10,614 nucleotides of DNA from contig JAFGIH010000591.1 in NCBI GenBank assembly GCA_016929985.1, positions 1-10,614 of the forward strand, in the 5' to 3' direction. The position numbers were made by a program, and so were the translations under genes. Origin of the DNA: Thermoleophilia bacterium (GTDB taxonomy: Bacteria > Actinomycetota > Thermoleophilia > RBG-16-64-13). The notes under the pieces were generated by a model that was not told the DNA's origin, ran no database searches, and was given only the letters and a program-made list of their open reading frames with translations. Positions 443-9,972 of the stretch are shown in pieces. How positions within the stretch are numbered: the stretch's first letter is position 1; the number at the start of each line of letters is the position of its first letter.

Positions 443-1348
443 CTAGCCTCCAGCGGAGGGAGCGACCGCCTCAGGTTCGATGAGTTTGAAGCTGACCAGC
501 TCGCCCTGCGCCACGATGCGCTGCTTGGCGCTGTAGATGGGGTGGCACGCCGCCAGCGATATCTGCTCTCTGCCCTTCTGGGCCACCGTCTCCACCTCGT
601 CGGGGTAGACGATGAACACTGAGGTCACCGCGTAACGGATGACGGCGTACGGCAGCACGAGGTCGATGTGATCGCCGGGATCGAGTTCGTTCAGCTTGAA
701 GAAGGGCGCCCCATAGGTTGTCCGGTGACCCGAGACCACGAAGTTGCCCCCCTGGCCCGGGTAGGGAGTCTCTTCCCAGTGACCCGGTCCCTCCTTGAGA
801 TCGCGGACGCTCGTCCCTTCCACGACCACCACGTCCACTCCGATCTTCGGGATGAGGATCTTGCCGACCGGCTCACCGATCTTACCGCTGACCGTGAGGG
901 CATACTCGGTAGCAGCAGCCTTGAACGCGGCCAGTTTGGCATCGCGCTCCGCCTTCGCCGCCGCTATGGCCGCCTCCACCTCGTCGATCTCTTCCACGGT
1001 AGCGTCGGGATCGATGGTGGTAGTGGTGGTGGAGGTCTCCACGACAAAGAGTTCACCGGAGGTGAGGGCCTCCTCGGCCACCGCCAGTTGGGGGTTGGCG
1101 GCCTCGAGATCCTCCCGGAGCCTGTTCTGCTCGATGGCGGTACAGGCGCAGGTGCCGCCGTAGTAGGCCGGGATGGCGAGGACTCCCGCGACGATCAACA
1201 GGTTGGCCACCCGGCGTATCCACCTGCGGCGCTTGTCGCGATTGTCGCGCGCGACCGCGGCTCCTCCGTCCGGTGGCGCTTCTGGAGAGCCCGTTCCACC
1301 GGAGGGCTCGACTGGGGGAACGGAGCTGTCGGTGCGCTCGTCGGTCAT
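443..1348 (-). CDS. Class E-like sortase, membrane-anchored
   Basis: A 301-residue transpeptidase expected to cleave a C-terminal sorting signal and attach proteins to the cell envelope. Residues 1-45 are Pro/Gly-rich then basic (RDKRRRWIRR). A membrane segment at about 46-63 is followed by two cysteines (C67, C69). Residues 75-150 form a charged Ala/Glu-rich, possibly coiled-coil stalk with a run of threonines (about 107-111). The catalytic domain begins near 162 (GKILIPKIGVD). The putative triad is H208 (VVSGHRTTYG), C268 (SLAACHP) and R277 (KQRIVA). The residue before the active Cys is Ala rather than the usual Thr of the TLxTC motif. The frame stays open to 1543, but the upstream part lacks family features; ATG 1348 has a possible -10 box just upstream and no Shine-Dalgarno. 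No LPxTG-like substrate is encoded in the window. Confidence 0.85.
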   Translation of the reverse strand: MTDERTDSSVPPVEPSGGTGSPEAPPDGGAAVARDNRDKRRRWIRRVANLLIVAGVLAIPAYYGGTCACTAIEQNRLREDLEAANPQLAVAEEALTSGELFVVETSTTTTTIDPDATVEEIDEVEAAIAAAKAERDAKLAAFKAAATEYALTVSGKIGEPVGKILIPKIGVDVVVVEGTSVRDLKEGPGHWEETPYPGQGGNFVVSGHRTTYGAPFFKLNELDPGDHIDLVLPYAVIRYAVTSVFIVYPDEVETVAQKGREQISLAACHPIYSAKQRIVAQGELVSFKLIEPEAVAPSAGG

Positions 1349-1506: not shown

Positions 1507-1713
1507 GTGACGGCGTTGGGGACGGGGAAGAGCCCTGCGACACCCCGGGGGATAAGAGGTTGGGTCAAGCCGGAGTTGATCGTGCTTGCTCGGTCCAAGC
1601 CTGAGGAAGCCGCGCTGGATGCGTGCAAGACCACCTACATCCAGATTCTGGGTTCAACCGGCAACCAATGCTATACCCTGTTTGTCCTGTGCATGCAGAA
1701 CTCTAGTTCGTAG
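1507..1713 (+). CDS. Putative RiPP precursor peptide 1
   Basis: A 68-residue peptide without a signal sequence or membrane segment. Residues 1-18 are a basic, low-information stretch. Residues 19-41 form a leader-like block starting at W19, with PELIVLARSKPEE in the middle and ending at C40-K41. This aligns without gaps to residues 8-30 of the peptide at 6420-6623, with 12 of 23 identities. The tail after K41 (27 residues) holds C55 and C62 and ends in NSSS; it is fairly hydrophobic (Tyr, Ile, Leu, Phe, Val). A conserved leader with a variable Cys-bearing core is the signature of a modified ribosomal peptide, and the radical SAM enzyme at 5355-6413 is the only candidate maturase in the window. 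The GTG start has GAGAGG three bases upstream, a short spacing; TTG 1516 is the alternative. The gene is divergent from the sortase and 95 bp upstream of manC. Modification is inferred. Confidence 0.7.
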   Translation: MTALGTGKSPATPRGIRGWVKPELIVLARSKPEEAALDACKTTYIQILGSTGNQCYTLFVLCMQNSSS

Positions 1714-1781
1714 GCCGGCCCCGTCTCATCTCGCGGCCCCACGCCGCCCCGTCGCACTCTACCGGCCTCACGCGCGGCACG

Positions 1782-1790
1782 TGATAGTCT
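1782..1790 (+). promoter_or_regulatory. Possible extended -10 promoter of manC
   Basis: TGATAGTCT (TG at 1782, hexamer TAGTCT at 1785-1790) resembles the element before precursor 1. It would start a transcript near 1797, about 12 bases before the ATG at 1809. No -35 box is convincing, and read-through from precursor 1 is equally possible. Confidence 0.25.
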
Positions 1791-1808
1791 GCTACCGAGA
1801 CTCATCCA

Positions 1809-3323
1809 ATGCCTCGTGGAGGTCGCAAATCCGTGAGTGGCTCGTCGATCATCCAACCCGTCATACTGGCCGGCGGCTCCGGCACCAGACTCTGGCCGGC
1901 TTCCCGCCGGGCCCATCCAAAGCAACTGCTCGCTCTCGCGGGCGAGAACACGCTCCTACAGGAGACGGTCCTTAGGCTGCGCGCCTTGGACGGCGTTCCC
2001 GGCGCCGGTCCGCGGGTAGCCGAACCGGCTGTGGTGACCAACGAGGAGTACCGCTTCGTGGTGGCCGCTCAGCTGCAGGAGGTAGGGGTCACGGCTCCGC
2101 GGATCATCCTCGAGCCTGTCGGCCGTAACACCGCCCCGGCGCTGACTCTGGCCGCGGTCGCGCTCCCCGACTCCGAAGAAGACCCCATCCTGCTGGTTCT
2201 CCCCTCCGATCACTTGATCAAGGACCTTGCCGCGTTTCTTGCCGCCGTGGACGAGGGCGTGCAACACGCGGAGGCCGGATCGGTGGTCACGTTCGGCATA
2301 ACGCCCGACCGGGCCGAGACCGGCTACGGATACATCATGGCGGGTGACCCGGTGCCCGGGGCGCCGACCGCCCGGGTCTTGGTCAGCTTCACCGAGAAGC
2401 CGGGCGCTGAGACCGCGCAGCGCTACCTGGACTCTGGTGACTACCTCTGGAACAGCGGCATGTTCATGGTGAAGCGTTCTGCGTGGTTGACGACGCTCGA
2501 TCGCTACCAGGCCGAGATCCTGACTTCCTGCCGGGCGGCCGTCGCCGTGACGAAGACCGACGGCGTATTCACGCGAGTCGGAGGGGCCGAGTTCGGTTCG
2601 TGCCCCGCCGTTTCCATCGACTACGCGGTCATGGAGCAACTGGGCTCTCCGAATGTGCCCGGGCCCTCCGCGGGCGCGCAGGCGGTGGTGATACCTCTGG
2701 ACGCCGGTTGGTCAGACGTAGGTGCTTGGGCATCCCTGTGGGAAGTCCTAGCGCATGACGAGGCGGGCAACGCCTGCTGCGGAGACGTCGTTCTGGAGAG
2801 CAGCCGGAGCACACTGGTGCACGCCGACTCCCGCCTGGTCGCGGTGCTCGGCGTGGACGATCTGGTGGTGGTGGAGACCGCCGACGCGGTGCTGGTGGCC
2901 TCCAAGGAGCGGACGCAAGACCTGAAGACGCTCGTGGCCCTGGTTCAGGAAAGAGACGAGAGTCTCACCACCTACCACCGCCAGGTGCACCGCCCCTGGG
3001 GGCGCTTCGACTCCATCCACAAGGGCGAGCGCTTCCATGTCAAGCATATCGTCGTCAGCCCCGGAGCCAGTCTGAGCCTGCAGCTGCACAGGCACCGTGC
3101 GGAGCACTGGGTGGTGGTCAGAGGTGTCGCCGAGGTCACCTGCGGGAACGAGACGTTCCCTCTGATCGAGAACGAGTCGACCTACGTTCCGCTCGGAATG
3201 CCCCACCGGCTCGTGAACCCCGGACCTGAACCATTGGAGATCATCGAAGTCCAGTCGGGCGACTACTTGGGCGAGGATGACATCGTCCGGCTGGAAGACA
3301 CCTACGGCCGCGTCGAAGAGTGA
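1809..3323 (+). CDS. manC: Mannose-1-phosphate guanylyltransferase / mannose-6-phosphate isomerase (type II)
   Basis: A 504-residue two-domain enzyme making GDP-mannose for surface polysaccharide; length is normal for the AlgA/ManC family. The N-terminal nucleotidyltransferase domain carries the signature VILAGGSGTRLWPASR (about residues 18-33), PKQLLAL just after it, and later FTEKPG and WNSGMFM. The C-terminal cupin isomerase domain starts near residue 394 (HRPWGRFDSI). It contains the histidine-rich motif QLHRHRAEHW with probable metal ligands H427, H429 and H466 (MPHR), and ends with IIEVQSGDYLGEDDIVR. ATG 1809 is the first start; GTG 1833 (VSGSSIIQPV) is a real alternative because GGAGG lies 10 bases before it. 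The gene converges on the epimerase gene with 54 bp between. Whether the isomerase half is active cannot be judged. Confidence 0.93.
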   Translation: MPRGGRKSVSGSSIIQPVILAGGSGTRLWPASRRAHPKQLLALAGENTLLQETVLRLRALDGVPGAGPRVAEPAVVTNEEYRFVVAAQLQEVGVTAPRIILEPVGRNTAPALTLAAVALPDSEEDPILLVLPSDHLIKDLAAFLAAVDEGVQHAEAGSVVTFGITPDRAETGYGYIMAGDPVPGAPTARVLVSFTEKPGAETAQRYLDSGDYLWNSGMFMVKRSAWLTTLDRYQAEILTSCRAAVAVTKTDGVFTRVGGAEFGSCPAVSIDYAVMEQLGSPNVPGPSAGAQAVVIPLDAGWSDVGAWASLWEVLAHDEAGNACCGDVVLESSRSTLVHADSRLVAVLGVDDLVVVETADAVLVASKERTQDLKTLVALVQERDESLTTYHRQVHRPWGRFDSIHKGERFHVKHIVVSPGASLSLQLHRHRAEHWVVVRGVAEVTCGNETFPLIENESTYVPLGMPHRLVNPGPEPLEIIEVQSGDYLGEDDIVRLEDTYGRVEE

Positions 3324-3331
3324 TGCGACAC

Positions 3332-3367
3332 GCCCGATAGGATCCGGGGGGCCCGATAGGAATCCGC
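3332..3367. repeat. Short direct repeat between convergent genes
   Basis: GCCCGATAGGATCCG (3332-3346) recurs as GCCCGATAGGAATCCG (3351-3366), with starts 19 bp apart and one extra A in the second copy. The pair fills the gap between the stop codons of manC and the epimerase gene. Confidence 0.6.
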
Positions 3368-3372
3368 GGGCC
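3350..3372. terminator. Possible bidirectional hairpin between manC and the epimerase gene
   Basis: GGCCCG (3350-3355) can pair with CGGGCC (3367-3372), with GG/CC (3359-3360 with 3364-3365) able to extend the fold inside the loop. It lies between two convergent genes, where a shared terminator would be expected. There is no T-tract on either strand, so the call rests on position and pairing only. Confidence 0.35.
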
Positions 3373-3377
3373 GAAGG

Positions 3378-4355
3378 TCAGTCCTCGGTATCCACGTCCT
3401 TGGCCCAGTCGCGATTCTCGCGGTACCACTTGCAGAGCCGGGCCACGCCCTCCTTCAGAGAGACCCGGGGTTCCCAGCCCAGCAGGCGCTGCGCCTTTCC
3501 CACGTCGGCCCAGGTGGCCATGACGTCGGCGGCATGCATGGGATGCTGCTCTATGCGGGCCTTGGCGCCCGCCTCGGCCTCCACCAGCGCGATGAGCTCC
3601 AGCAGGTCGTGCGGGCTATCGCCGCCCAGGTTGATGACCTCGTAACCCACAGGCTTCAGACCCAGGATGGTGCCCCTGGCCACGTCGTCCACATAGGTGA
3701 AATCGCGCGACTGGCTGCCATCGCCGTAGAGCCGCAGGGGACGCTCCTCGTGGATCCACTGGCAGAAGCGGAAGAGGCTCATGTCGGGACGGCCGGCGGG
3801 ACCGTAGACGGTGAAGTAGCGGAACACGGTCACGTCGATGCCGTAGAGATGGTGATACGTGAAGCAGAGCGCCTCGGCCCCCTTCTTGGAGGCGGCGTAG
3901 GGCGACAGGGGCCGGTTTGTGTCGGCGTCTTCGGAGAACGGCACCGGGTTGTCCGCCCCGTAGAGGCTGGAGGTGGAGGCCAGCACGAACTTGCCTACTC
4001 CGTCGCGGCGGCAGAGCTCGAGCAGATTCAGGGTGCCGGTCATATTGGTCTCTACGTAGACCCAGGGGTTCTCCACACTCTGGCGCACGCCCGCGCGGGC
4101 GGCCAGGTTGATGACCGCGTCGAAGGGGCCGCACTCGTCCCAGAGGGCCGTGATGGACTCCCGCTCGGCGATGTCGGCCAGGTGGAAGTCGAGCCCGGGC
4201 AGGCCTTTCAGTCGCTCCAGGCGGTAGTGCTTGAGCCGCAGGTCGTATGCGGGGCACAGGTTGTCGACGCCGCAGACCTGATGCCCCTGCTCGAGGAGCA
4301 TCTCGGCCACGCGGCTGCCGATGAAGCCGGCCGTGCCTGTTGCTAGAATCTGCAT
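3378..4355 (-). CDS. NAD-dependent sugar epimerase, UDP-glucuronate 4-epimerase-like
   Basis: A 325-residue extended short-chain dehydrogenase, of normal length for UDP-sugar epimerases. The Rossmann dinucleotide motif is GTAGFIGS (7-14), with D31 placed to bind the adenosine ribose. Catalytic residues are the Ser/Thr of STSSLYG (about 127-133) and the YxxxK pair Y153/K157 (YAASK). FRYFTVYGPAGRPDMSLFRF (178-197) matches the form typical of UDP-glucuronate 4-epimerases more than UDP-glucose 4-epimerases, so UDP-galacturonate is the likeliest product; specificity is inferred. ATG 4355 has AAGGGG six bases upstream. It lies 36 bp after the vanZ-like gene on the same strand and is probably the last gene of the operon that begins at the second precursor peptide. 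It would supply a uronic acid to a cell-surface glycan. Confidence 0.88.
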   Translation of the reverse strand: MQILATGTAGFIGSRVAEMLLEQGHQVCGVDNLCPAYDLRLKHYRLERLKGLPGLDFHLADIAERESITALWDECGPFDAVINLAARAGVRQSVENPWVYVETNMTGTLNLLELCRRDGVGKFVLASTSSLYGADNPVPFSEDADTNRPLSPYAASKKGAEALCFTYHHLYGIDVTVFRYFTVYGPAGRPDMSLFRFCQWIHEERPLRLYGDGSQSRDFTYVDDVARGTILGLKPVGYEVINLGGDSPHDLLELIALVEAEAGAKARIEQHPMHAADVMATWADVGKAQRLLGWEPRVSLKEGVARLCKWYRENRDWAKDVDTED

Positions 4356-4391
4356 GTATCGCCCCTTGGTCGATGTCTCCCCGCCGGTTCA

Positions 4392-4934
4392 TCATATCTC
4401 ATGGTTGTGCTTCGCCCGCCGCCTCCGCAAAATGAGCCACGCCGCGCCCAGCCCTACCACGAGCCCCGCCACGTCGATGAGGGCGTCTCCGGGAGACCCC
4501 GTCCGGGAAGCCACGAAAGTCTGATGGAATTCGTCGGTAGCGGCGACCACGACGCCGAGGGGGAGCACCACAAGGGCCAGCCTCCTCAGGGTTTCACCAC
4601 CGCTTGTGCCCGGTCGGGCGGCACCCCAGCCAGGGTGGAGACCCCACAGCGTCCAGGAGAGCAGCAGCGCCAGCACGGTGTACTCGACGAAGTGCGCCAG
4701 TTTGCGCACAACCAGGGAGAGGAGGGAGAACTCCGCGTCAGAAGGGCCTGGCTCCCAGCCGAAGATCCAGTCCAGCAGCCTCTCGAGGACGGAGCCCGTG
4801 TGCACCTCCGAGCCGATATCCGTGGACGCCAGGGCGATCACCACCAGCCAGACGATCACCGGCAGGCAAAACCAGGCGGCGCGAGCCAGATGCCGCGCCC
4901 GCGGACGCGGCTTGGGGGACGTCTCCTCATCCAT
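4392..4934 (-). CDS. VanZ-family integral membrane protein
   Basis: A 180-residue membrane protein with hydrophobic segments at about 21-37, 84-100, 119-133 and 151-169. Conserved VanZ-family features are RKLAHFVEY (77-85) after the first loop and TDEFHQTFVASRTGSPGDALIDV (split here as TDEFHQTFVASRTGSP, 133-148, then GDALIDV, 149-155) before the last helix. The family is named after the teicoplanin-resistance accessory protein VanZ, but most members have no established function. Such genes are common in exopolysaccharide and cell-envelope loci, and the neighbouring epimerase gene 36 bp downstream fits that. The ATG at 4934 lacks a clear Shine-Dalgarno; it follows the broken nucleotidyltransferase gene by 28 bp and may be translated by coupling. 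Nothing suggests a resistance role here. Confidence 0.85.
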   Translation of the reverse strand: MDEETSPKPRPRARHLARAAWFCLPVIVWLVVIALASTDIGSEVHTGSVLERLLDWIFGWEPGPSDAEFSLLSLVVRKLAHFVEYTVLALLLSWTLWGLHPGWGAARPGTSGGETLRRLALVVLPLGVVVAATDEFHQTFVASRTGSPGDALIDVAGLVVGLGAAWLILRRRRAKHNHEI

Positions 4935-4962
4935 CGTCTACGTCGGGTGAGGCGGACCCGAG

Positions 4963-5322
4963 CTACAGCTCGCCGTCGACCGAGTCAGGGTGCGCTCGGA
5001 CCCACTCCAGCAGAGCATCGAGCAAAGAGCGGACATCATCCATCTGGCTCGAACCAATGTCGTAGAGCTCCTGCTCCGACATTTCATCGTAGAGTCACGG
5101 GTCGCTCCCCACCAGCTCTTTCCATTGTTGCTTGCAGAACGGAGTCAGATCGCCGGCACGCCGCAGATGATAGAGCCGGCTCTCGCTTTCAGCATAGGCG
5201 TCTTCCGTGTATAGAGACTCACCTCTTACCACCTCCGCCGCTCGGCTGCCGAAAACGTAGATCGACTCGAGCCGGTAGCGACGGGCAATGGCAGTCAAAC
5301 GGCTTTGCAGGACCTCTTCCAT
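4963..5322 (-). pseudogene. Remnant of a MNT-type nucleotidyltransferase gene with internal loss and a premature stop
   Basis: From ATG 5322 the frame encodes 75 residues. The start (LESIYVFGSRAAEVVRGE) has the GSRA motif of minimal nucleotidyltransferases. The following SDxD metal-binding core is missing: after RGE the protein continues directly with SLYTEDAYAESESRLYHL and RRAGDLTPF, which resembles the C-terminal end of this family, where a second RGE-LLY motif usually occurs. A TGA at 5095-5097 then interrupts the frame, which stays open for 43 more codons (LYDEMSEQELYDIG ... to TAG at 4963). Read as CGA, the TGA would rejoin both parts. So about 50 residues seem to be lost, perhaps by recombination between the two RGE-coding segments, plus a nonsense change. 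The rSAM stop is 32 bp upstream. A translated 75-residue remnant, or a separate 39-residue ORF from ATG 5082, cannot be excluded. Confidence 0.6.
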
Positions 5323-5354
5323 CGGTCCGTGTCGCACCGGCGCACGGTTCCGAG

Positions 5355-6413
5355 TCACGCGGTCGTAGCGGAGGCGGAGCTTGTGCGTTCGTGCTTGAAG
5401 CGCCTGGTCTCCCGGGCCACCCGGCAGAGATAGTCCACCTTCGCCGAATAGCGACCGTGCTCCAGATACGCGTAGACCGCACACCAACGGCAATCCCCGC
5501 GCAGGTCGCAGGAGCCGCAACCGGCGCGGTACTCTTCGCTGGCCCGCACTACATCGGCCAGAGACGGGATGAACTCGTCCCACGCCTCCTGGAAGGTGCC
5601 TCGGCGGAGATCGTAGCGTAAGGCCGGGTCTTTGACGAAGCTACAGAAGCTCATGAGGCCGTAGGGGTCTATATGGAAGTCGCGCCGGGCCTCTATGCAC
5701 ACGGCGAAGAGGCGGTCGTCGGCCGGCCCGGCCTCGTTGCCGACACCGGGAGATTCCGCCTGGTCGTCACCCGGCGGGTCAAGGGCCACCACCTCAGCGG
5801 GATCCAGTCGCTGCCGGGCGATCTCCTGGTTGCGCGCGTCGGAACGGCACGCGGTGAACAACAGCCAGGCCGCCCCCACCCTGTAGTGGGAACTCAGCGA
5901 GCGCGCCAACTCCACCATCTGCCCGTACTGGTGATAATTGTCACGCATGGGGACGATCTGGACGATGAAGCCGGCCCCGGCCTCCTTGAGATAGGCCAGG
6001 CCGCGCATGGTGGCCTCGAAGGAGCCGGGAGTGCGGGTCACGTGATCGTGGACGTCGGCGGTGGCTCCGTACAAGGCAACCATCTTCGCGCCGCGGCGGG
6101 TCATGAGCCGCGCGATCTGGGGAGTGATGAGCGACCCGTTGGTGTTGAGCGAATACCCGACCGCTTTGCGCGTGATGTACGCGAAGATATCGGCGAAATC
6201 GGGCCGCAGCATCGGCTCACCGCCGGAGATAGCCCAGGACCGGCATCCCATGCGGCGGGCTTGGTCGACTACGTCCTTGATTTCATCGAAAGACAGCTCT
6301 TCGGCCGCCTCCGACGCGCCGGGCGGCAGGCGCAGCCAGCAGTGGCGACAGTCGTTGTTGCAGCGGTAGGTGAGATCGAGATTGCCTTCGAGAGGGAGTC
6401 GCGGCAGATCCAC
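5355..6413 (-). CDS. Radical SAM/SPASM enzyme, putative RiPP maturase
   Basis: A 352-residue radical SAM enzyme. The SAM-binding [4Fe-4S] motif is C18, C22, C25 (YRCNNDCRHCW); GGEP follows at 64-67 and LNTNGSLIT at 89-97. The C-terminal SPASM domain has a full cysteine set: C239, C257, then C299-x2-C302-x5-C308-x2-C311, and C330, enough for two auxiliary clusters. SPASM enzymes typically act on peptides, forming thioether or carbon-carbon crosslinks, or on protein side chains. No separate peptide-recognition (RRE) domain is visible; the protein starts directly at the barrel's first strand. The GTG at 6413 begins 6 bp after the stop of precursor 2, strongly suggesting that peptide is a substrate, with coupled translation. 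Heme or cofactor-peptide processing enzymes share this architecture, so the exact reaction is unknown. The Ser/Thr/Ala-rich C-terminus is dispensable-looking. Confidence 0.9.
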   Translation of the reverse strand: MDLPRLPLEGNLDLTYRCNNDCRHCWLRLPPGASEAAEELSFDEIKDVVDQARRMGCRSWAISGGEPMLRPDFADIFAYITRKAVGYSLNTNGSLITPQIARLMTRRGAKMVALYGATADVHDHVTRTPGSFEATMRGLAYLKEAGAGFIVQIVPMRDNYHQYGQMVELARSLSSHYRVGAAWLLFTACRSDARNQEIARQRLDPAEVVALDPPGDDQAESPGVGNEAGPADDRLFAVCIEARRDFHIDPYGLMSFCSFVKDPALRYDLRRGTFQEAWDEFIPSLADVVRASEEYRAGCGSCDLRGDCRWCAVYAYLEHGRYSAKVDYLCRVARETRRFKHERTSSASATTA

Positions 6414-6419
6414 ACGCGC

Positions 6420-6623
6420 CTAGCTCTGCCAGCGGCTGCTGCAGGACTGTCTGCACCTGTTGTGTTCCTGATCTGCGGCCTTGCAGTCGGCGTAGGTCAC
6501 ACCCTGGCTGCCCGACCCAGACGCACCGTCCACTTTGCAGCCCTGCAGCACGTTCTCTTCGGGCCTTCCGCGTGTGAGTACGACCATCTCGGGGGTCTTC
6601 CAGTGCGCCTTGGGCGACGGCAT
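6420..6623 (-). CDS. Putative RiPP precursor peptide 2
   Basis: A 67-residue peptide immediately upstream of the radical SAM gene (6-bp gap). Residues 8-30 form the leader-like block shared with the peptide at 1507-1713: W8, then PEMVVLTRGRPEE, ending C29-K30. The tail of 37 residues is polar and Gly/Ser-rich, with C47, C57 and C61 and the ending CSSRWQS. The two tails share no obvious similarity beyond Cys and terminal Ser. The frame is open to 6767, but the upstream part is promoter-like. ATG 6623 is chosen because GGAAGGGA (6638-6631) sits 7 bases before it; ATG 6629 is in frame but only one or two bases from that site. No signal peptide or membrane segment is present. The product is predicted to be modified by the downstream enzyme; whether the Cys residues form thioether, disulfide or metal ligands is not determinable. 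Confidence 0.75.
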   Translation of the reverse strand: MPSPKAHWKTPEMVVLTRGRPEENVLQGCKVDGASGSGSQGVTYADCKAADQEHNRCRQSCSSRWQS

Positions 6624-6735
6624 CTTCATGTCCCTTCCGCGCGACACCGAGCGGTCGTGCCGACTCGGCGTTTCCACACAACAAACGCGTTCGGGCTCAA
6701 AATAGCACAAGATGTCCCCGCGCGCGTCGCTACGA

Positions 6736-7176
6736 CTATTGAGTCCAGGAGTGCAACTTGAGACCATCGAAGCGCGAGTAGTGCTTCACGTCGAAGGTGG
6801 CCACGTGATCCAGACCGCGGCTCTTCATCCAGCAGGCGTTGTAGCCATCAACGAAATCCACATTCGAGTCCACGTAGGCGAACAGGGCGTCGACTACGAT
6901 GTCAGACTCCCACATGACCAAGCCGTCCATGGATGCCACGGCCACGACGTGTTCAACCACTTGCGGCCGCGACAGGCGATAGTAGGATTCGAGCACCCAT
7001 ACCAACTCGGCAAGCACCATGGTGTTCGTCACCAACTGAAGGTCCCCGGCGGCCGCCCGAAGGAACAGCCTTTCGACCGCGGCCGCCTGGTCGGGCACAT
7101 CGTTGGTGAAGAACCGCAGAAAGACGTTCGTGTCCACGAAAACCGGACCCTGTTCGGGGGAATCACCTGGGGTCAC
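6736..7176 (-). CDS. vapC: PIN-domain toxin (VapC-like ribonuclease)
   Basis: A 146-residue PIN-fold endoribonuclease, typical length for VapC toxins. Acidic metal-binding residues are in place: D15 (VFVDTNVFLRFF), E57 (VLAELVWVLE), D107 and D110 (NVDFVDGYNACWMKSRG) and D129 (VATFDVKHYSRF). VapC toxins cleave specific RNAs, often tRNA, and are held inactive by the antitoxin. The GTG start at 7176 overlaps the end of the AbrB-type antitoxin gene by 14 bp, and GAGG lies about 7 bases upstream, so the two are translationally coupled in the usual antitoxin-first order. All catalytic residues are present, so it is probably functional. The gene ends 112 bp before the start of precursor 2, with no obvious terminator between. 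Confidence 0.9.
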   Translation of the reverse strand: MTPGDSPEQGPVFVDTNVFLRFFTNDVPDQAAAVERLFLRAAAGDLQLVTNTMVLAELVWVLESYYRLSRPQVVEHVVAVASMDGLVMWESDIVVDALFAYVDSNVDFVDGYNACWMKSRGLDHVATFDVKHYSRFDGLKLHSWTQ

Positions 7177-7447
7177 TGCTCGTCCTCAGAGCGCGTTCAC
7201 CCCGCACTTGGGCTCTGATCGCCTCGAAGTCCTGGGGAGCCTCCACCGGTATGCTGCCGCGAAGCGCCTGCAAAGAGCGGCCGGTCGGTCGGAGCACCAA
7301 CTGGCCGTCTCGCACCTGCACCATCAGCTGTTGTCCTTCTTCGAGCCGCAACTGACGCCGAAGTGCGCTTGGGATGGTTATCTGACCTCGACGGCCGATC
7401 CGAAGTGCGGGCATCGGAGCCTCCCGTGTCTGACTGCCTCCTATCAT
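7163..7447 (-). CDS. vapB: AbrB/SpoVT-type (VapB/MazE-like) antitoxin
   Basis: A 94-residue protein, or 83 residues if it starts at ATG 7414. The swapped-hairpin AbrB domain is plain: ALRIGRRGQITIPSALRR, followed by LRLEEGQQLMVQVRDGQLVLRP. The remaining 35 or so residues would wrap around the PIN toxin encoded next. Two starts are credible. ATG 7447 has a perfect AGGAGG five bases upstream. ATG 7414 has GGGAGG five bases upstream and puts the DNA-binding domain at the N-terminus, as is usual in the family. If the promoter-like element at 7448-7477 is real, initiation would fall after 7447 and the 7414 start would be the one used. The protein likely represses its own operon. Confidence 0.88.
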   Translation of the reverse strand: MIGGSQTREAPMPALRIGRRGQITIPSALRRQLRLEEGQQLMVQVRDGQLVLRPTGRSLQALRGSIPVEAPQDFEAIRAQVRGERALRTSSDPR

Positions 7448-7578: not shown

Positions 7579-9015
7579 ATGCTGTTCACGAGTTACACGT
7601 TCGCTCTCTTCGTGGTGGCTGCGTTCGGCGTCTACTACCTGGCCGTTCGGCTCTCCCGGGGCAGGCGCCTGCAGAACCTGGCTCTGCTCGCCCTGAGCTA
7701 CGCCTTCTACGCACTGTGGGACTGGCGTTGGTGTCTCCTGCTGCTGTGCGTCACGGCGAGCGGGTTCGGGGCCGGCCTCCTACTCGATCGCCCGGGCGCC
7801 CGCCGCCGCACCATCCTCGTGGTGGTGCTGGTGATCGACCTTGCGATCCTGGCCGCCTTCAAGTACCTGGGGTTCTTCGCCCAGTCGTTCGCGTCGTTCT
7901 TCGAGTCCATCGGGCTGCAGGCCGACTGGGTGACGCTGCATCTCGCCTTGCCGGTGGGCCTCAGCTACTACGTCTTCCAGAATCTGTCATACGTTATCGA
8001 CGTGTACCGGCGGCAGCTGCCCGCGACCACGGGCGTGATCGAGTACGCGACGGCGCTCAGCTTCTTCCCCCAGCTTCTGGCCGGCCCCATCACCCGTCCG
8101 CGCGACCTGCTGCCGCAGCTCTTCGAGCGTCGCGGTTTCGACGACCAGCGCGCCCGGGATGGGCTCCGGCAGATACTCTGGGGTCTCACCAAGAAGATGC
8201 TCATCGCCGACAACATCGGCGCCCAGGTAGACCAGGTGTGGGCGAACATCGGTGAGGCAGACGGCGTCACGTTGGCCATCACCACCGTACTCTACTCGTT
8301 CCAGATCTACTGCGACTTCTCCGGATACGCCGACATGGCCATCGGCACCGCGAAGCTCTTCAACCTGCGTCTGTCGAAGAACTTCGACTATCCCTATTTC
8401 TCCACATCCATACGGGATTTCTGGCGGCGCTGGCACATCACGCTGGCCGGCTGGATGAGGGACTACCTCTACATCCCCCTGGGCGGGAGCCGCTGCGGGG
8501 TGCTCCGCCACACCTTCAACGTGCTGGTGACCTTCGTGGTGGTGGGACTGTGGCACGGGGCCAACCCCACCTACCTGGTGTGGGGGCTCTTTCACGGCGT
8601 GTGTCTGTCGGTGGAGAACATCTTCCGCCGGGCCCGTCGCTCGAAGCAGGTGGGCGAAGCTGAGACGGGGGCCCGCGGCCTGCCGGGGCGCGCCTTGGCC
8701 GGGGTGGTGGTCTTCGTGCTCGTGACCTTCGCCTGGATCTTCTTCCGCGCGCCCTCTCTCACGGCGGCGGCGGATTTCCTGGTGCAGGGCGTCACTCATC
8801 CGGTCTCGGGCGGGGAATACGTGCAATACCTGCCCATGCTGGTGGTTTCGGGCGCGCTTCTGGTCTATGAACGGTTGACGCGTCGCTGGGAGCACGGCTT
8901 CGCTTTCGCGCGGGCGCCCGTATCAGTCCGCTGGGCCGTCTACCTGGTGGCCTGCGTCGTTCTGCTGCTCTTCGGGCAGTTCGGCGGGCAGCAGGGCATC
9001 TACGTGCAGTTCTAG
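7579..9015 (+). CDS. AlgI/DltB-family membrane-bound O-acyltransferase (MBOAT)
   Basis: A 478-residue polytopic membrane enzyme of normal AlgI length, expected to pass acetyl groups across the membrane for O-acetylation of an extracellular polymer. Hallmarks are LSYYVFQNLSYVIDVYR (128-144), FFPQLLAGPITR (162-173), YCDFSGYADMAIG (244-256), DFWRRWHITLAGWMRDYLYI (280-299) and GLWHGANPTYLVWGLFHG (323-340), where H326 is the presumed catalytic histidine. Many hydrophobic segments run from residue 3 to about 470. The C-terminus (GQQGIYVQF) is the usual family ending, so the last 93 bp, overlapped by the convergent gene, are truly coding. ATG 7579 has no Shine-Dalgarno but follows a possible promoter closely. 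The substrate is unknown; with manC and the epimerase nearby, an exopolysaccharide is plausible, alginate itself unproven. Confidence 0.93.
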   Translation: MLFTSYTFALFVVAAFGVYYLAVRLSRGRRLQNLALLALSYAFYALWDWRWCLLLLCVTASGFGAGLLLDRPGARRRTILVVVLVIDLAILAAFKYLGFFAQSFASFFESIGLQADWVTLHLALPVGLSYYVFQNLSYVIDVYRRQLPATTGVIEYATALSFFPQLLAGPITRPRDLLPQLFERRGFDDQRARDGLRQILWGLTKKMLIADNIGAQVDQVWANIGEADGVTLAITTVLYSFQIYCDFSGYADMAIGTAKLFNLRLSKNFDYPYFSTSIRDFWRRWHITLAGWMRDYLYIPLGGSRCGVLRHTFNVLVTFVVVGLWHGANPTYLVWGLFHGVCLSVENIFRRARRSKQVGEAETGARGLPGRALAGVVVFVLVTFAWIFFRAPSLTAAADFLVQGVTHPVSGGEYVQYLPMLVVSGALLVYERLTRRWEHGFAFARAPVSVRWAVYLVACVVLLLFGQFGGQQGIYVQF

Positions 9016-9972
9016 ACCGCCCTGCGCGCCCTGCGCGGCCTGCGCAGCCCGGGCACCCACGATCTGCGCCAGTTTCTCCGCCACGTCGGCGCTGAACAGC
9101 TCCGCTCCCGCCTTGTTCATGTGCTGGGAGTTGTAGAAGTAGGTGGTGTCGAGGCAGATGGGGTCGATCGAGTAGTCGAGGAACTCGACGCCGTACTTCC
9201 CGGCCAGCCGCTCGTAGACGGCGAGGATCTCTTCCCTATTGTTCACCAGTTCTTGGCCCTTGTAATACTCGGGCGGATAGACAAGCACCACCAGGATCCC
9301 CTCGCGCCCACAGTCGGCCAGGAAGGCGTCCAAGTCGTTCTCCGCCGACTCGAGGTGCACCATATCCACGCCATCCGGGTGATCCCGCGCGTACTGCTCG
9401 AACTCGCCGGTCCAGTCCATGTCGATGCCCTCGTAGCCACGGTCTTTGGCGCTGGTGTAGTGCCGCAGACCGAGGGCTTCCATGGCGCCTGCATACGCCA
9501 GACCGGACTCCCCTCTGTAGCGGACGAGCGGCAGGTAGTAGTCGTACCACTTGAAGTAGTCATACGGGCGTACGCCCTCCCTGACGGCGTCCTCGCTCAG
9601 GTAGGGCAAGAACTGCTCGGCTTCGTAGATGTCGCTCCGGACGTTCAGCGACGACACGTCGAGCGCCTGAACGACGACCTTGGGCTTCTGGTTGTACTCG
9701 CGGTACAGCCTGTAGCGGGCCAACTGCATGTCCAAGTCGTAGCCGTCGACGCCGAGGTTGTAGCAGGTCATGCCCAAGCGATCGCCGATGATGCCGGGCG
9801 AGAAATGCACCCAGGCTCGCGAGCTGCCCTGGATGATGACGTCCGAGGCCGCGGCCCCACTGCGGATGTCGTTCCAGACCACATACTGCTCCGACCCGGA
9901 CTTCCGCAGGCCTGCAGTCACCAGGTAGTCGATGCCGGAGCACAACGCCCCCAGCACGACAACGAACAACAC
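8923..9972 (-). CDS. Membrane-anchored SGNH-hydrolase-like protein (AlgX/AlgJ/DltD-like role)
   Basis: A 349-residue protein with an N-terminal hydrophobic anchor (about residues 1-20) and an extracytoplasmic domain. IIQGSSRAWVHFSP (46-59) holds the nucleophile-block serine (S51 probable) and DTTYFYNSQHMNKAG (275-289) the D/H block (D275, H284) of the SGNH fold. Such proteins pair with MBOAT enzymes to complete polysaccharide or teichoic acid acylation; the convergent MBOAT gene fits. The GTG at 9972 has no ribosome-binding site. A CTG at 9996 is preceded four bases upstream by GGAGGG and would add LKRYLWHA, giving the basic N-terminus expected before an anchor, so it may be the real start. 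The last 31 codons lie antisense to the MBOAT gene, and residues from about 313 on (Ala/Gln repeats, then an acidic tail) look like non-homologous run-on. Confidence 0.82.
   Translation of the reverse strand: MLFVVVLGALCSGIDYLVTAGLRKSGSEQYVVWNDIRSGAAASDVIIQGSSRAWVHFSPGIIGDRLGMTCYNLGVDGYDLDMQLARYRLYREYNQKPKVVVQALDVSSLNVRSDIYEAEQFLPYLSEDAVREGVRPYDYFKWYDYYLPLVRYRGESGLAYAGAMEALGLRHYTSAKDRGYEGIDMDWTGEFEQYARDHPDGVDMVHLESAENDLDAFLADCGREGILVVLVYPPEYYKGQELVNNREEILAVYERLAGKYGVEFLDYSIDPICLDTTYFYNSQHMNKAGAELFSADVAEKLAQIVGARAAQAAQGAQGGLELHVDALLPAELPEEQQNDAGHQVDGPAD
9019..9045. repeat. Three-copy 9-bp tandem repeat
   Basis: GCCCTGCGC occurs twice in a row (9019-9036) followed by GGCCTGCGC (9037-9045). It encodes the Ala-Ala-Gln-type repeats in the tail of the SGNH-like protein and starts 4 bp past the MBOAT stop. 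In-frame copy number change by slippage is possible. Confidence 0.8.

What the first reader, a model, noticed from the sequence alone, without database searches (positions are those of the whole stretch)
1507..6623. Two distant small peptides share one leader block but have different Cys-bearing cores
Residues 19-41 of the peptide at 1507-1713 and 8-30 of the one at 6420-6623 align with no gap: 12 of 23 positions identical (W, P, E, V, L, R, P, E, E, L, C, K), with further I/V, L/M and K/R conservative pairs. The tails diverge completely except for two or three cysteines and a Ser-rich end. Conserved leader plus variable core is diagnostic of RiPP precursors, and here the copies lie on opposite strands about 5 kb apart. 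That spacing implies duplication and core diversification within one locus. I see the similarity directly; the RiPP reading follows from family logic.
Basis: partly seen in the sequence, partly recalled or inferred. Interest (0 to 1): 0.82.

Follow-up and report, generated by a model that had tools for sequence, protein, structure and literature searches.

The report
Widespread modified-peptide family with dispersed precursors
Two small genes in this stretch look like starting peptides for a poorly known family of enzyme-modified peptides shared by bacteria and archaea, in which relatives pair radical enzymes with a kinase-like domain and almost every peptide ends in the same amino acid.

Summary
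In detail: the two peptides share a leader, WxxPE(L/M)xVLxRx(K/R)PEExxLxxCK, far beyond chance. It marks a large family: 916 protein clusters match a 23-member profile, and neither window peptide matches NCBIfam or Pfam. The RiPP reading holds. Peptide 2 lies 6 bases upstream of a radical SAM gene, and in 258 sampled genomes precursor and maturase occur together in 14, precursor alone in 1, maturase alone in 0. Relatives' cassettes encode three radical SAM enzymes (one usually fused to an HprK/PEPCK-fold domain), a PqqD-type recognition protein, a signal-peptidase-like protease and sometimes a nucleotidyltransferase and ABC transporter. That is the gene set of paeninodin-type lasso peptides and LPPs, plus radical SAM enzymes. 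I infer radical modification of the Cys-bearing core and phosphorylation of the terminal Ser; no chemistry was tested. Local duplication is not supported: each leader is closer to most listed relatives than to the other. The window's enzyme lacks the kinase domain, and no other cassette gene was found in the window, so a reduced or decaying locus is possible.

The parts
1507..1713 (+). Precursor peptide 1 (68 aa, GTG start). Core has two Cys instead of the usual three; ends CMQNSSS (Cys at -7, Ser at -1). 3.6 kb from the radical SAM gene.
   Evidence: ORF list; leader HMM E 5.5e-14 (the peptide is in the seed set); GC at third codon position 0.74.
1561..1629 (+). 23-residue leader block of peptide 1, WVKPELIVLARSKPEEAALDACK.
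6420..6629 (-). Precursor peptide 2 (69 aa, ATG at 6629). Three core Cys; ends CSSRWQS (Cys at -7, Ser at -1). Its stop codon lies 6 bases before the start of the radical SAM gene.
   Evidence: listed as P0106.
6534..6602 (-). 23-residue leader block of peptide 2, WKTPEMVVLTRGRPEENVLQGCK.
5355..6413 (-). Radical SAM protein (352 aa), here rSAM-A without its usual kinase-like domain. CX3CX2C motif and seven C-terminal Cys in a SPASM-like pattern invariant over 14 aligned relatives.
   Evidence: PF04055 E 3.9e-23; 59-67% identical to 24 loci from several phyla; alignment A3; model pLDDT 77.6, Foldseek best matches BlsE, SkfB, SuiB. SPASM motif recalled, not from a call.

Best explanation
The two peptides are precursors of one radical-SAM RiPP family. 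Shown by comparison: a conserved WxxPExxVLxR-PEE-VLxxCK leader; a variable core with about three Cys; a near-fixed end C-x5-(S/T); strict genome co-occurrence with rSAM-A; and, in relatives, a cassette with rSAM-A (usually fused to an HprK/PEPCK-fold domain), rSAM-B, PqqD, a signal-peptidase-like protease and rSAM-C. Inferred: PqqD binds the WxxPxL part of the leader and presents the precursor; the radical SAM/SPASM enzymes crosslink or otherwise modify the core, probably at Cys; the kinase domain phosphorylates the C-terminal Ser; the nucleotidyltransferase, where present, decorates that phosphate; the protease removes the leader and the ABC transporter exports the product. One maturation cassette can serve several precursors scattered over the genome. 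In the window, the operon peptide 2 plus rSAM-A is a reduced version, and peptide 1 would be a satellite precursor.
Against: No chemistry is shown. The window's rSAM lacks the kinase domain and none of the other cassette genes was found in the window by tblastn. The P-loop is degenerate in 4 of 26 fused copies and missing in the close relative P0122, yet the precursors keep the terminal Ser. The fold match is as good to PEPCK as to HprK. Two of the 24 rSAM-A genomes (G021, G022) gave no precursor match, and one genome (G197) has a precursor without rSAM-A. 10 of 36 precursors lack Cys at -7. In LPPs the HprK-like kinase modifies Ser3 of the core, not the C-terminus.
Confidence: 0.75

Rival explanations
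1. The family is a real radical-SAM RiPP, but this window holds only a decaying remnant: the kinase domain and the rest of the cassette are lost and the two precursors are no longer matured.
For: rSAM-A is 352 aa where the complete relatives in the 24 loci are about 610-730 aa; no PqqD, protease, rSAM-B or rSAM-C found in the window; peptide 1 has two core Cys instead of three; the relative P0122 keeps the kinase domain without its P-loop.
Against: An independent metagenome protein, P0121, is 91% identical with the same short C-terminus; all catalytic Cys are kept; other short forms of about 355-360 aa are listed, such as P0166 on a 55-kb contig with 17 members; peptide 2 and rSAM-A are 6 bases apart; codon third-position GC of peptide 2 and rSAM-A is like that of neighbouring genes. 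The rest of the genome is not held, so genes elsewhere cannot be excluded.
Confidence: 0.25
2. RiPP precursors, but the kinase-fold domain is not a peptide kinase; the terminal Ser serves as a recognition or processing signal and the end product is only a crosslinked Cys peptide.
For: P-loop lost in 4 of 26 fused copies and the domain absent in some while the terminal Ser stays; fold equally close to PEPCK; Hpr_kinase_C score below Pfam's cut-off.
Against: 22 of 26 fused copies keep the P-loop, and most keep the DD and GTWSHG motifs. Genome G023, whose fused P-loop is degenerate, also has a separate copy with an intact one (L084). The terminal Ser/Thr matches what PadeK-type kinases use.
Confidence: 0.3
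3. Small Cys-rich metal-binding or secreted peptides whose link to radical SAM genes is incidental.
For: Cys spacing such as CxxC or CxxxC before the end; one weak zinc-finger hit among 23 members (E 0.051).
Against: Co-occurrence with rSAM-A in 14 of 15 precursor-bearing genomes of 258; precursors inside the cassette in many loci; leader conserved and core variable.
Confidence: 0.05
4. The similarity of the two peptides arose by recent duplication inside this locus.
For: Both lie within 5 kb of each other.
Against: 117 of 120 listed leaders are closer to peptide 1's than peptide 2's is, and 112 are closer to peptide 2's than peptide 1's is (list biased to consensus-like leaders).
Confidence: 0.04

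Closest known systems
LPP, linear polyphosphorylated peptides (lpp clusters, Bacillota; PMC13381572, 2026; abstract, passages and sections 6 and 11 seen)
   Same: Discrete RRE, archaeal-type signal peptidase as leader protease, HprK-like kinase, NTP transferase and MsbA-like transporter; 1-3 precursors with conserved N-terminus and variable C-terminus; leader with (Y/W)xxP. LPP clusters are described as embedded in capsular polysaccharide loci, and the window also looks like an exopolysaccharide locus.
   Different: The word 'radical' does not occur in that paper's main text; here three radical SAM enzymes, one usually fused to the kinase-like domain. Leader is WxxPExxVLxR-PEE-VLxxCK, not YxxPxVLxHQxIxFETxxS. 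The LPP phosphate is on Ser3 of the core; here the conserved Ser is the last residue. Hosts here include archaea, Chlorobiota, Omnitrophota, Chloroflexota and Desulfobacterota.
Paeninodin-type lasso peptides with PadeK/ThcoK/PsmK kinases and PsmN (PMC9266682, passages seen)
   Same: WxxPxL leader motif, discrete RRE, HprK-like kinase, nucleotidyltransferase, conserved C-terminal Ser that is phosphorylated.
   Different: The recurrent gene families of the 24 loci that I identified include no lasso cyclase or B2 peptidase, though no dedicated search for them was run; radical SAM enzymes and Cys-bearing cores instead.
SynChlorMet cassette (NCBIfam TIGR04250, TIGR04251)
   Same: Two radical SAM/SPASM proteins related to those here; that its other genes include a PqqD homologue, and that its precursor was not identified, is recalled, not from a call.
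   Different: Scores far below the curated cut-offs (98.7, 85 and 87 bits against 400), so not the same families.
Sactipeptides and ranthipeptides (SkfB, SuiB-like and PapB enzymes)
   Same: Radical SAM/SPASM maturases on Cys-bearing precursors; the model of the window enzyme matches SkfB and SuiB folds.
   Different: No dedicated sactipeptide or ranthipeptide model reached its cut-off in the rows shown; the kinase domain and the terminal Ser are not part of those classes, as I recall them.

Membership tests
RiPP precursor with radical SAM maturase | Conserved leader and variable core across relatives | tested here: met
   Mean pairwise identity 0.55 in the leader and 0.18 after it, 23 rows.
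RiPP precursor with radical SAM maturase | Precursor linked to a maturase gene | tested here: met
   6 bases apart in the window; 14 of 258 genomes with both, 1 precursor only, 0 maturase only. 4 of the 14 genomes gave rows to the profile (A2).
RiPP precursor with radical SAM maturase | Post-translational modification of the core | not testable with these tools
   Needs mass spectrometry.
LPP (linear polyphosphorylated peptides) | Leader motif YxxPxVLxHQxIxFETxxS | tested here: not met
   Leader here is WxxPExxVLxR-PEE-VLxxCK; LPP motif.
LPP (linear polyphosphorylated peptides) | SpI-like protease, discrete RRE, HprK-like kinase, NTP transferase, MsbA-like transporter in the cluster | tested here: inconclusive
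   In 24 relatives' loci: protease 15, PqqD 18, kinase-like domain 24, NTP_transf_5 7, ABC 8, some of the last two weak. In the window: none found.
Paeninodin-type lasso peptide | Conserved C-terminal Ser with an HprK-like kinase in the cluster | tested here: met
   Relatives: Ser 109, Thr 8 of 120; kinase-like fold. The window has the Ser but not the kinase.
Paeninodin-type lasso peptide | Lasso macrolactam cyclase and B2 peptidase | not tested
   No dedicated search was run; none was noticed among the recurrent ORF families or the ORFs.
SynChlorMet cassette | Radical SAM proteins above the TIGR04250 or TIGR04251 cut-off (400 bits) | tested here: not met
   98.7 bits for the window enzyme; at most 86.9 bits for the six relatives' enzymes scanned.
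Radical SAM/SPASM protein | CX3CX2C and SPASM Cys pattern | tested here: met
   C18, C22, C25 and C239, G252, C257, C299, C302, C308, C311, C330 invariant over 14 rows. Pfam SPASM itself was not reported for the window protein; the motif is recalled.
HprK/P-like kinase (domain fused to rSAM-A in relatives) | HprK fold with P-loop and DD motif | tested here: met

The most novel reading that the evidence does not exclude
A third, radical-SAM-based branch of the paeninodin/LPP group of phosphorylated RiPPs, spread across bacteria and archaea by horizontal transfer: a single enzyme that joins a radical SAM/SPASM maturase to an HprK-like kinase modifies the Cys-bearing core and phosphorylates the terminal Ser, and one cassette serves a genome-wide set of scattered precursors with different cores.
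Probability: 0.45. Interest if true: 0.85.

Novelty: new variant of a known kind. Interest (0 to 1): 0.7.

Why it matters
If right, it links two kinds of peptide tailoring, radical chemistry on the core and HprK-type phosphorylation of the tail, in one pathway and often in one polypeptide. It gives a precursor signature (WxxPExxVLxR-PEE-VLxxCK ... C-x5-S) that finds hundreds of peptides that the public family models used here do not name. It offers a RiPP system in methanogenic archaea and uncultured anaerobes with few described RiPPs, and a case where one cassette may serve several dispersed precursors.

Tried and rejected
Own-genome search: no genome is held for the window, so cassette genes elsewhere in it cannot be sought. 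SynChlorMet membership: considered because of ScmE/ScmF hits, rejected on score; 'SynChlorMet' has no hit in the paper library. Viral origin or spread: the radical SAM protein has no relative in viral contigs and none in plasmids at E 1e-40. Profile scan of viral contigs with A2 could not run (too few conserved columns). Local duplication: rejected. Sequence search of the kinase domain against solved structures gave only P-loop matches to ABC proteins and the like, so the fold search was used. A first regular expression for the P-loop found nothing and was replaced by a profile alignment. A first leader/core identity count used 14 of 23 rows because rows shared labels; repeated on all 23. A small ORF read at 4963-5081 was in the wrong frame and is not used.

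Literature: ten searches of the open-access library listed no paper that I recognised as describing this leader or a radical SAM-HprK fusion; subscription papers and bioRxiv are mostly not held, supplements were not read, and most listed papers were seen as listings only. Passages were read in PMC9266682, PMC12710340, PMC7470986 and PMC4289311, and abstract, passages and sections 6 and 11 in PMC13381572. [quoted passage not shown]
Full report
Observation. The two ORFs and the 23-residue block are as described, 12 of 23 identical. The score is not reached in 2,000 shuffles, though one other, unexamined frame pair of the window scores higher. Neither peptide matches NCBIfam or Pfam at E 1 or better. 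Among the 23 members of A2, only scattered single weak hits appear, one of them to the paeninodin lasso family (E 0.054).

The neighbour. Peptide 2 ends 6 bases before a 352-aa radical SAM gene. That protein finds 24 close relatives (59-67% identity; a 25th locus at 25% was dropped) in a collection with one genome per species: Omnitrophota, Aminicenantes, Desulfobacterota/Deltaproteobacteria, Chloroflexota, Acidobacteriota, Chlorobiota and Methanomicrobiales archaea. In a tree of 29 rows the four archaeal rSAM-A proteins form one clade (100/100) within bacterial ones; the window protein groups with P0121 and P0122 (99/97), the latter from an Armatimonadetes bin. Transfer between phyla is the simple reading, but the tool warns that bins can hold stray contigs.

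The precursor family. The leader was found in 14 of the 24 loci. A profile of 23 precursors matches 916 clusters at E 0.01 or better of 1,092 candidates, 120 listed. The 24 rSAM-A genomes hold 60 matches in 22 genomes, 14 of them with more than one and up to seven, often on contigs other than the cassette's; G021 and G022 have none. Co-occurrence in samples of two orders and one phylum: rSAM-A and precursors in the same 5 of 61 and the same 3 of 80 genomes; in the third sample 6 of 117 have rSAM-A and those 6 plus G197 have precursors. Total 258: both 14, precursor only 1, maturase only 0, neither 243 (Fisher p 3e-22; genomes are related, so the p value overstates). Four of the 14 genomes gave rows to the profile.

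Ends of the peptides. In the 120 listed relatives the last residue is Ser in 109, Thr in 8, Pro in 2 and Leu in 1; Cys is seventh from the end in 113; three core Cys in 112 (the list holds window peptide 2 itself and favours good profile fits). In 36 closed precursors from the fetched loci, window included, it is Ser 32, Thr 1, Ala 1, Val 1, Gly 1, with Cys at -7 in 26. Two of the exceptions look frame-disrupted or run on. Both window peptides have C-x5-S at the end; peptide 1 lacks the middle Cys.

The cassette. Typing by tblastn in 24 loci: rSAM-A and the kinase-like domain 24, rSAM-B 22, PqqD 18, rSAM-C 17, signal-peptidase-like protease 15, precursor 14, ABC 8, NTP_transf_5 7, some of the last two at only 21-32% identity; many loci stop at contig ends. 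Examples scanned: PqqD PF05402 E 8.7e-15, NTP_transf_5 E 5e-46, protease with Peptidase_S24 E 2e-6 and archaeal signal peptidase I below its cut-off. The PqqD protein aligns over its length with the lasso RRE TbiB1 (E 0.006). In the rows shown, no radical SAM protein of the cassette reaches a curated NCBIfam cut-off.

Mechanism. In paeninodin-type lasso peptides PadeK phosphorylates the conserved C-terminal Ser, and PsmN adds hexose to the phosphorylated Ser (PMC9266682, passages). LPP clusters share RRE, SpI protease, HprK-like kinase, NTP transferase and transporter, and the RRE presents the precursor to the protease (PMC13381572). By analogy the pathway here is: WxxPxL of the leader bound by PqqD; core modified by up to three radical SAM/SPASM enzymes; terminal Ser phosphorylated and perhaps decorated; leader removed; product exported. 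The radical SAM step is likely because of co-occurrence and fold (best matches BlsE, SkfB, SuiB); which bond is made is unknown. Placing the two leaders in register on W/YxxP puts PEE where LPP has FET before the cut; a cut there would leave the conserved CK in the core. That is a guess.

The window. Only rSAM-A and the two precursors were found here. The setting, with GMP-PMI, an epimerase, VanZ, MBOAT and a sortase, resembles an exopolysaccharide locus, as reported for LPP clusters. P0121 shows that the short enzyme is shared with another metagenome sequence, so it is not a one-off assembly error. Whether the locus works depends on genes that cannot be seen.

Verdict. The finding is a new variant of a known kind: the paeninodin/LPP gene set joined to radical SAM enzymes, with dispersed precursors and a fixed C-x5-S end. 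Nothing like it was recognised in ten searches of an open-access library; that is weak evidence of novelty.

Noticed in passing
window 6736-7176 (-) and 7163-7447 (-): PIN-domain protein (PF01850) with a MazE/AbrB-type partner (PF04014): a toxin-antitoxin pair just upstream of peptide 2.
   Followed up: no
window 5095-5322 (-): Short frame after the radical SAM gene with a weak nucleotidyltransferase match (PF18765, E 0.067) and lower third-position GC (0.66); possibly a gene fragment.
   Followed up: partly
window 443-1348 (-), 1809-3323 (+), 3378-4355 (-), 4392-4934 (-), 7579-9015 (+), 8923-9972 (-): Sortase, GMP-PMI, epimerase-like, VanZ, MBOAT and a weak GDSL protein: an exopolysaccharide-type locus; MBOAT and GDSL genes overlap at their 3' ends.
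   Followed up: partly
L018 and L024: Cassettes from an Aminicenantes bin and an Acidobacteria bin are nearly identical in rSAM-A (branches 0.03-0.04) and in precursor (L018, L033 of G024): same organism, stray contig or recent transfer.
   Followed up: no
G023 (L058 and L084): Fused kinase domain with degenerate P-loop and a separate copy with an intact one in the same genome.
   Followed up: partly
L006:5676-6728: The signal-peptidase-like protein is fused to a GNAT acetyltransferase domain.
   Followed up: no
L010:3841-4111: A precursor whose leader and core lie in two overlapping frames, so a frameshift or sequencing error.
   Followed up: no
G197:C65:2081-2245: Precursor match in a genome without an rSAM-A match: orphan or incomplete bin.
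   Followed up: no
   Followed up: no
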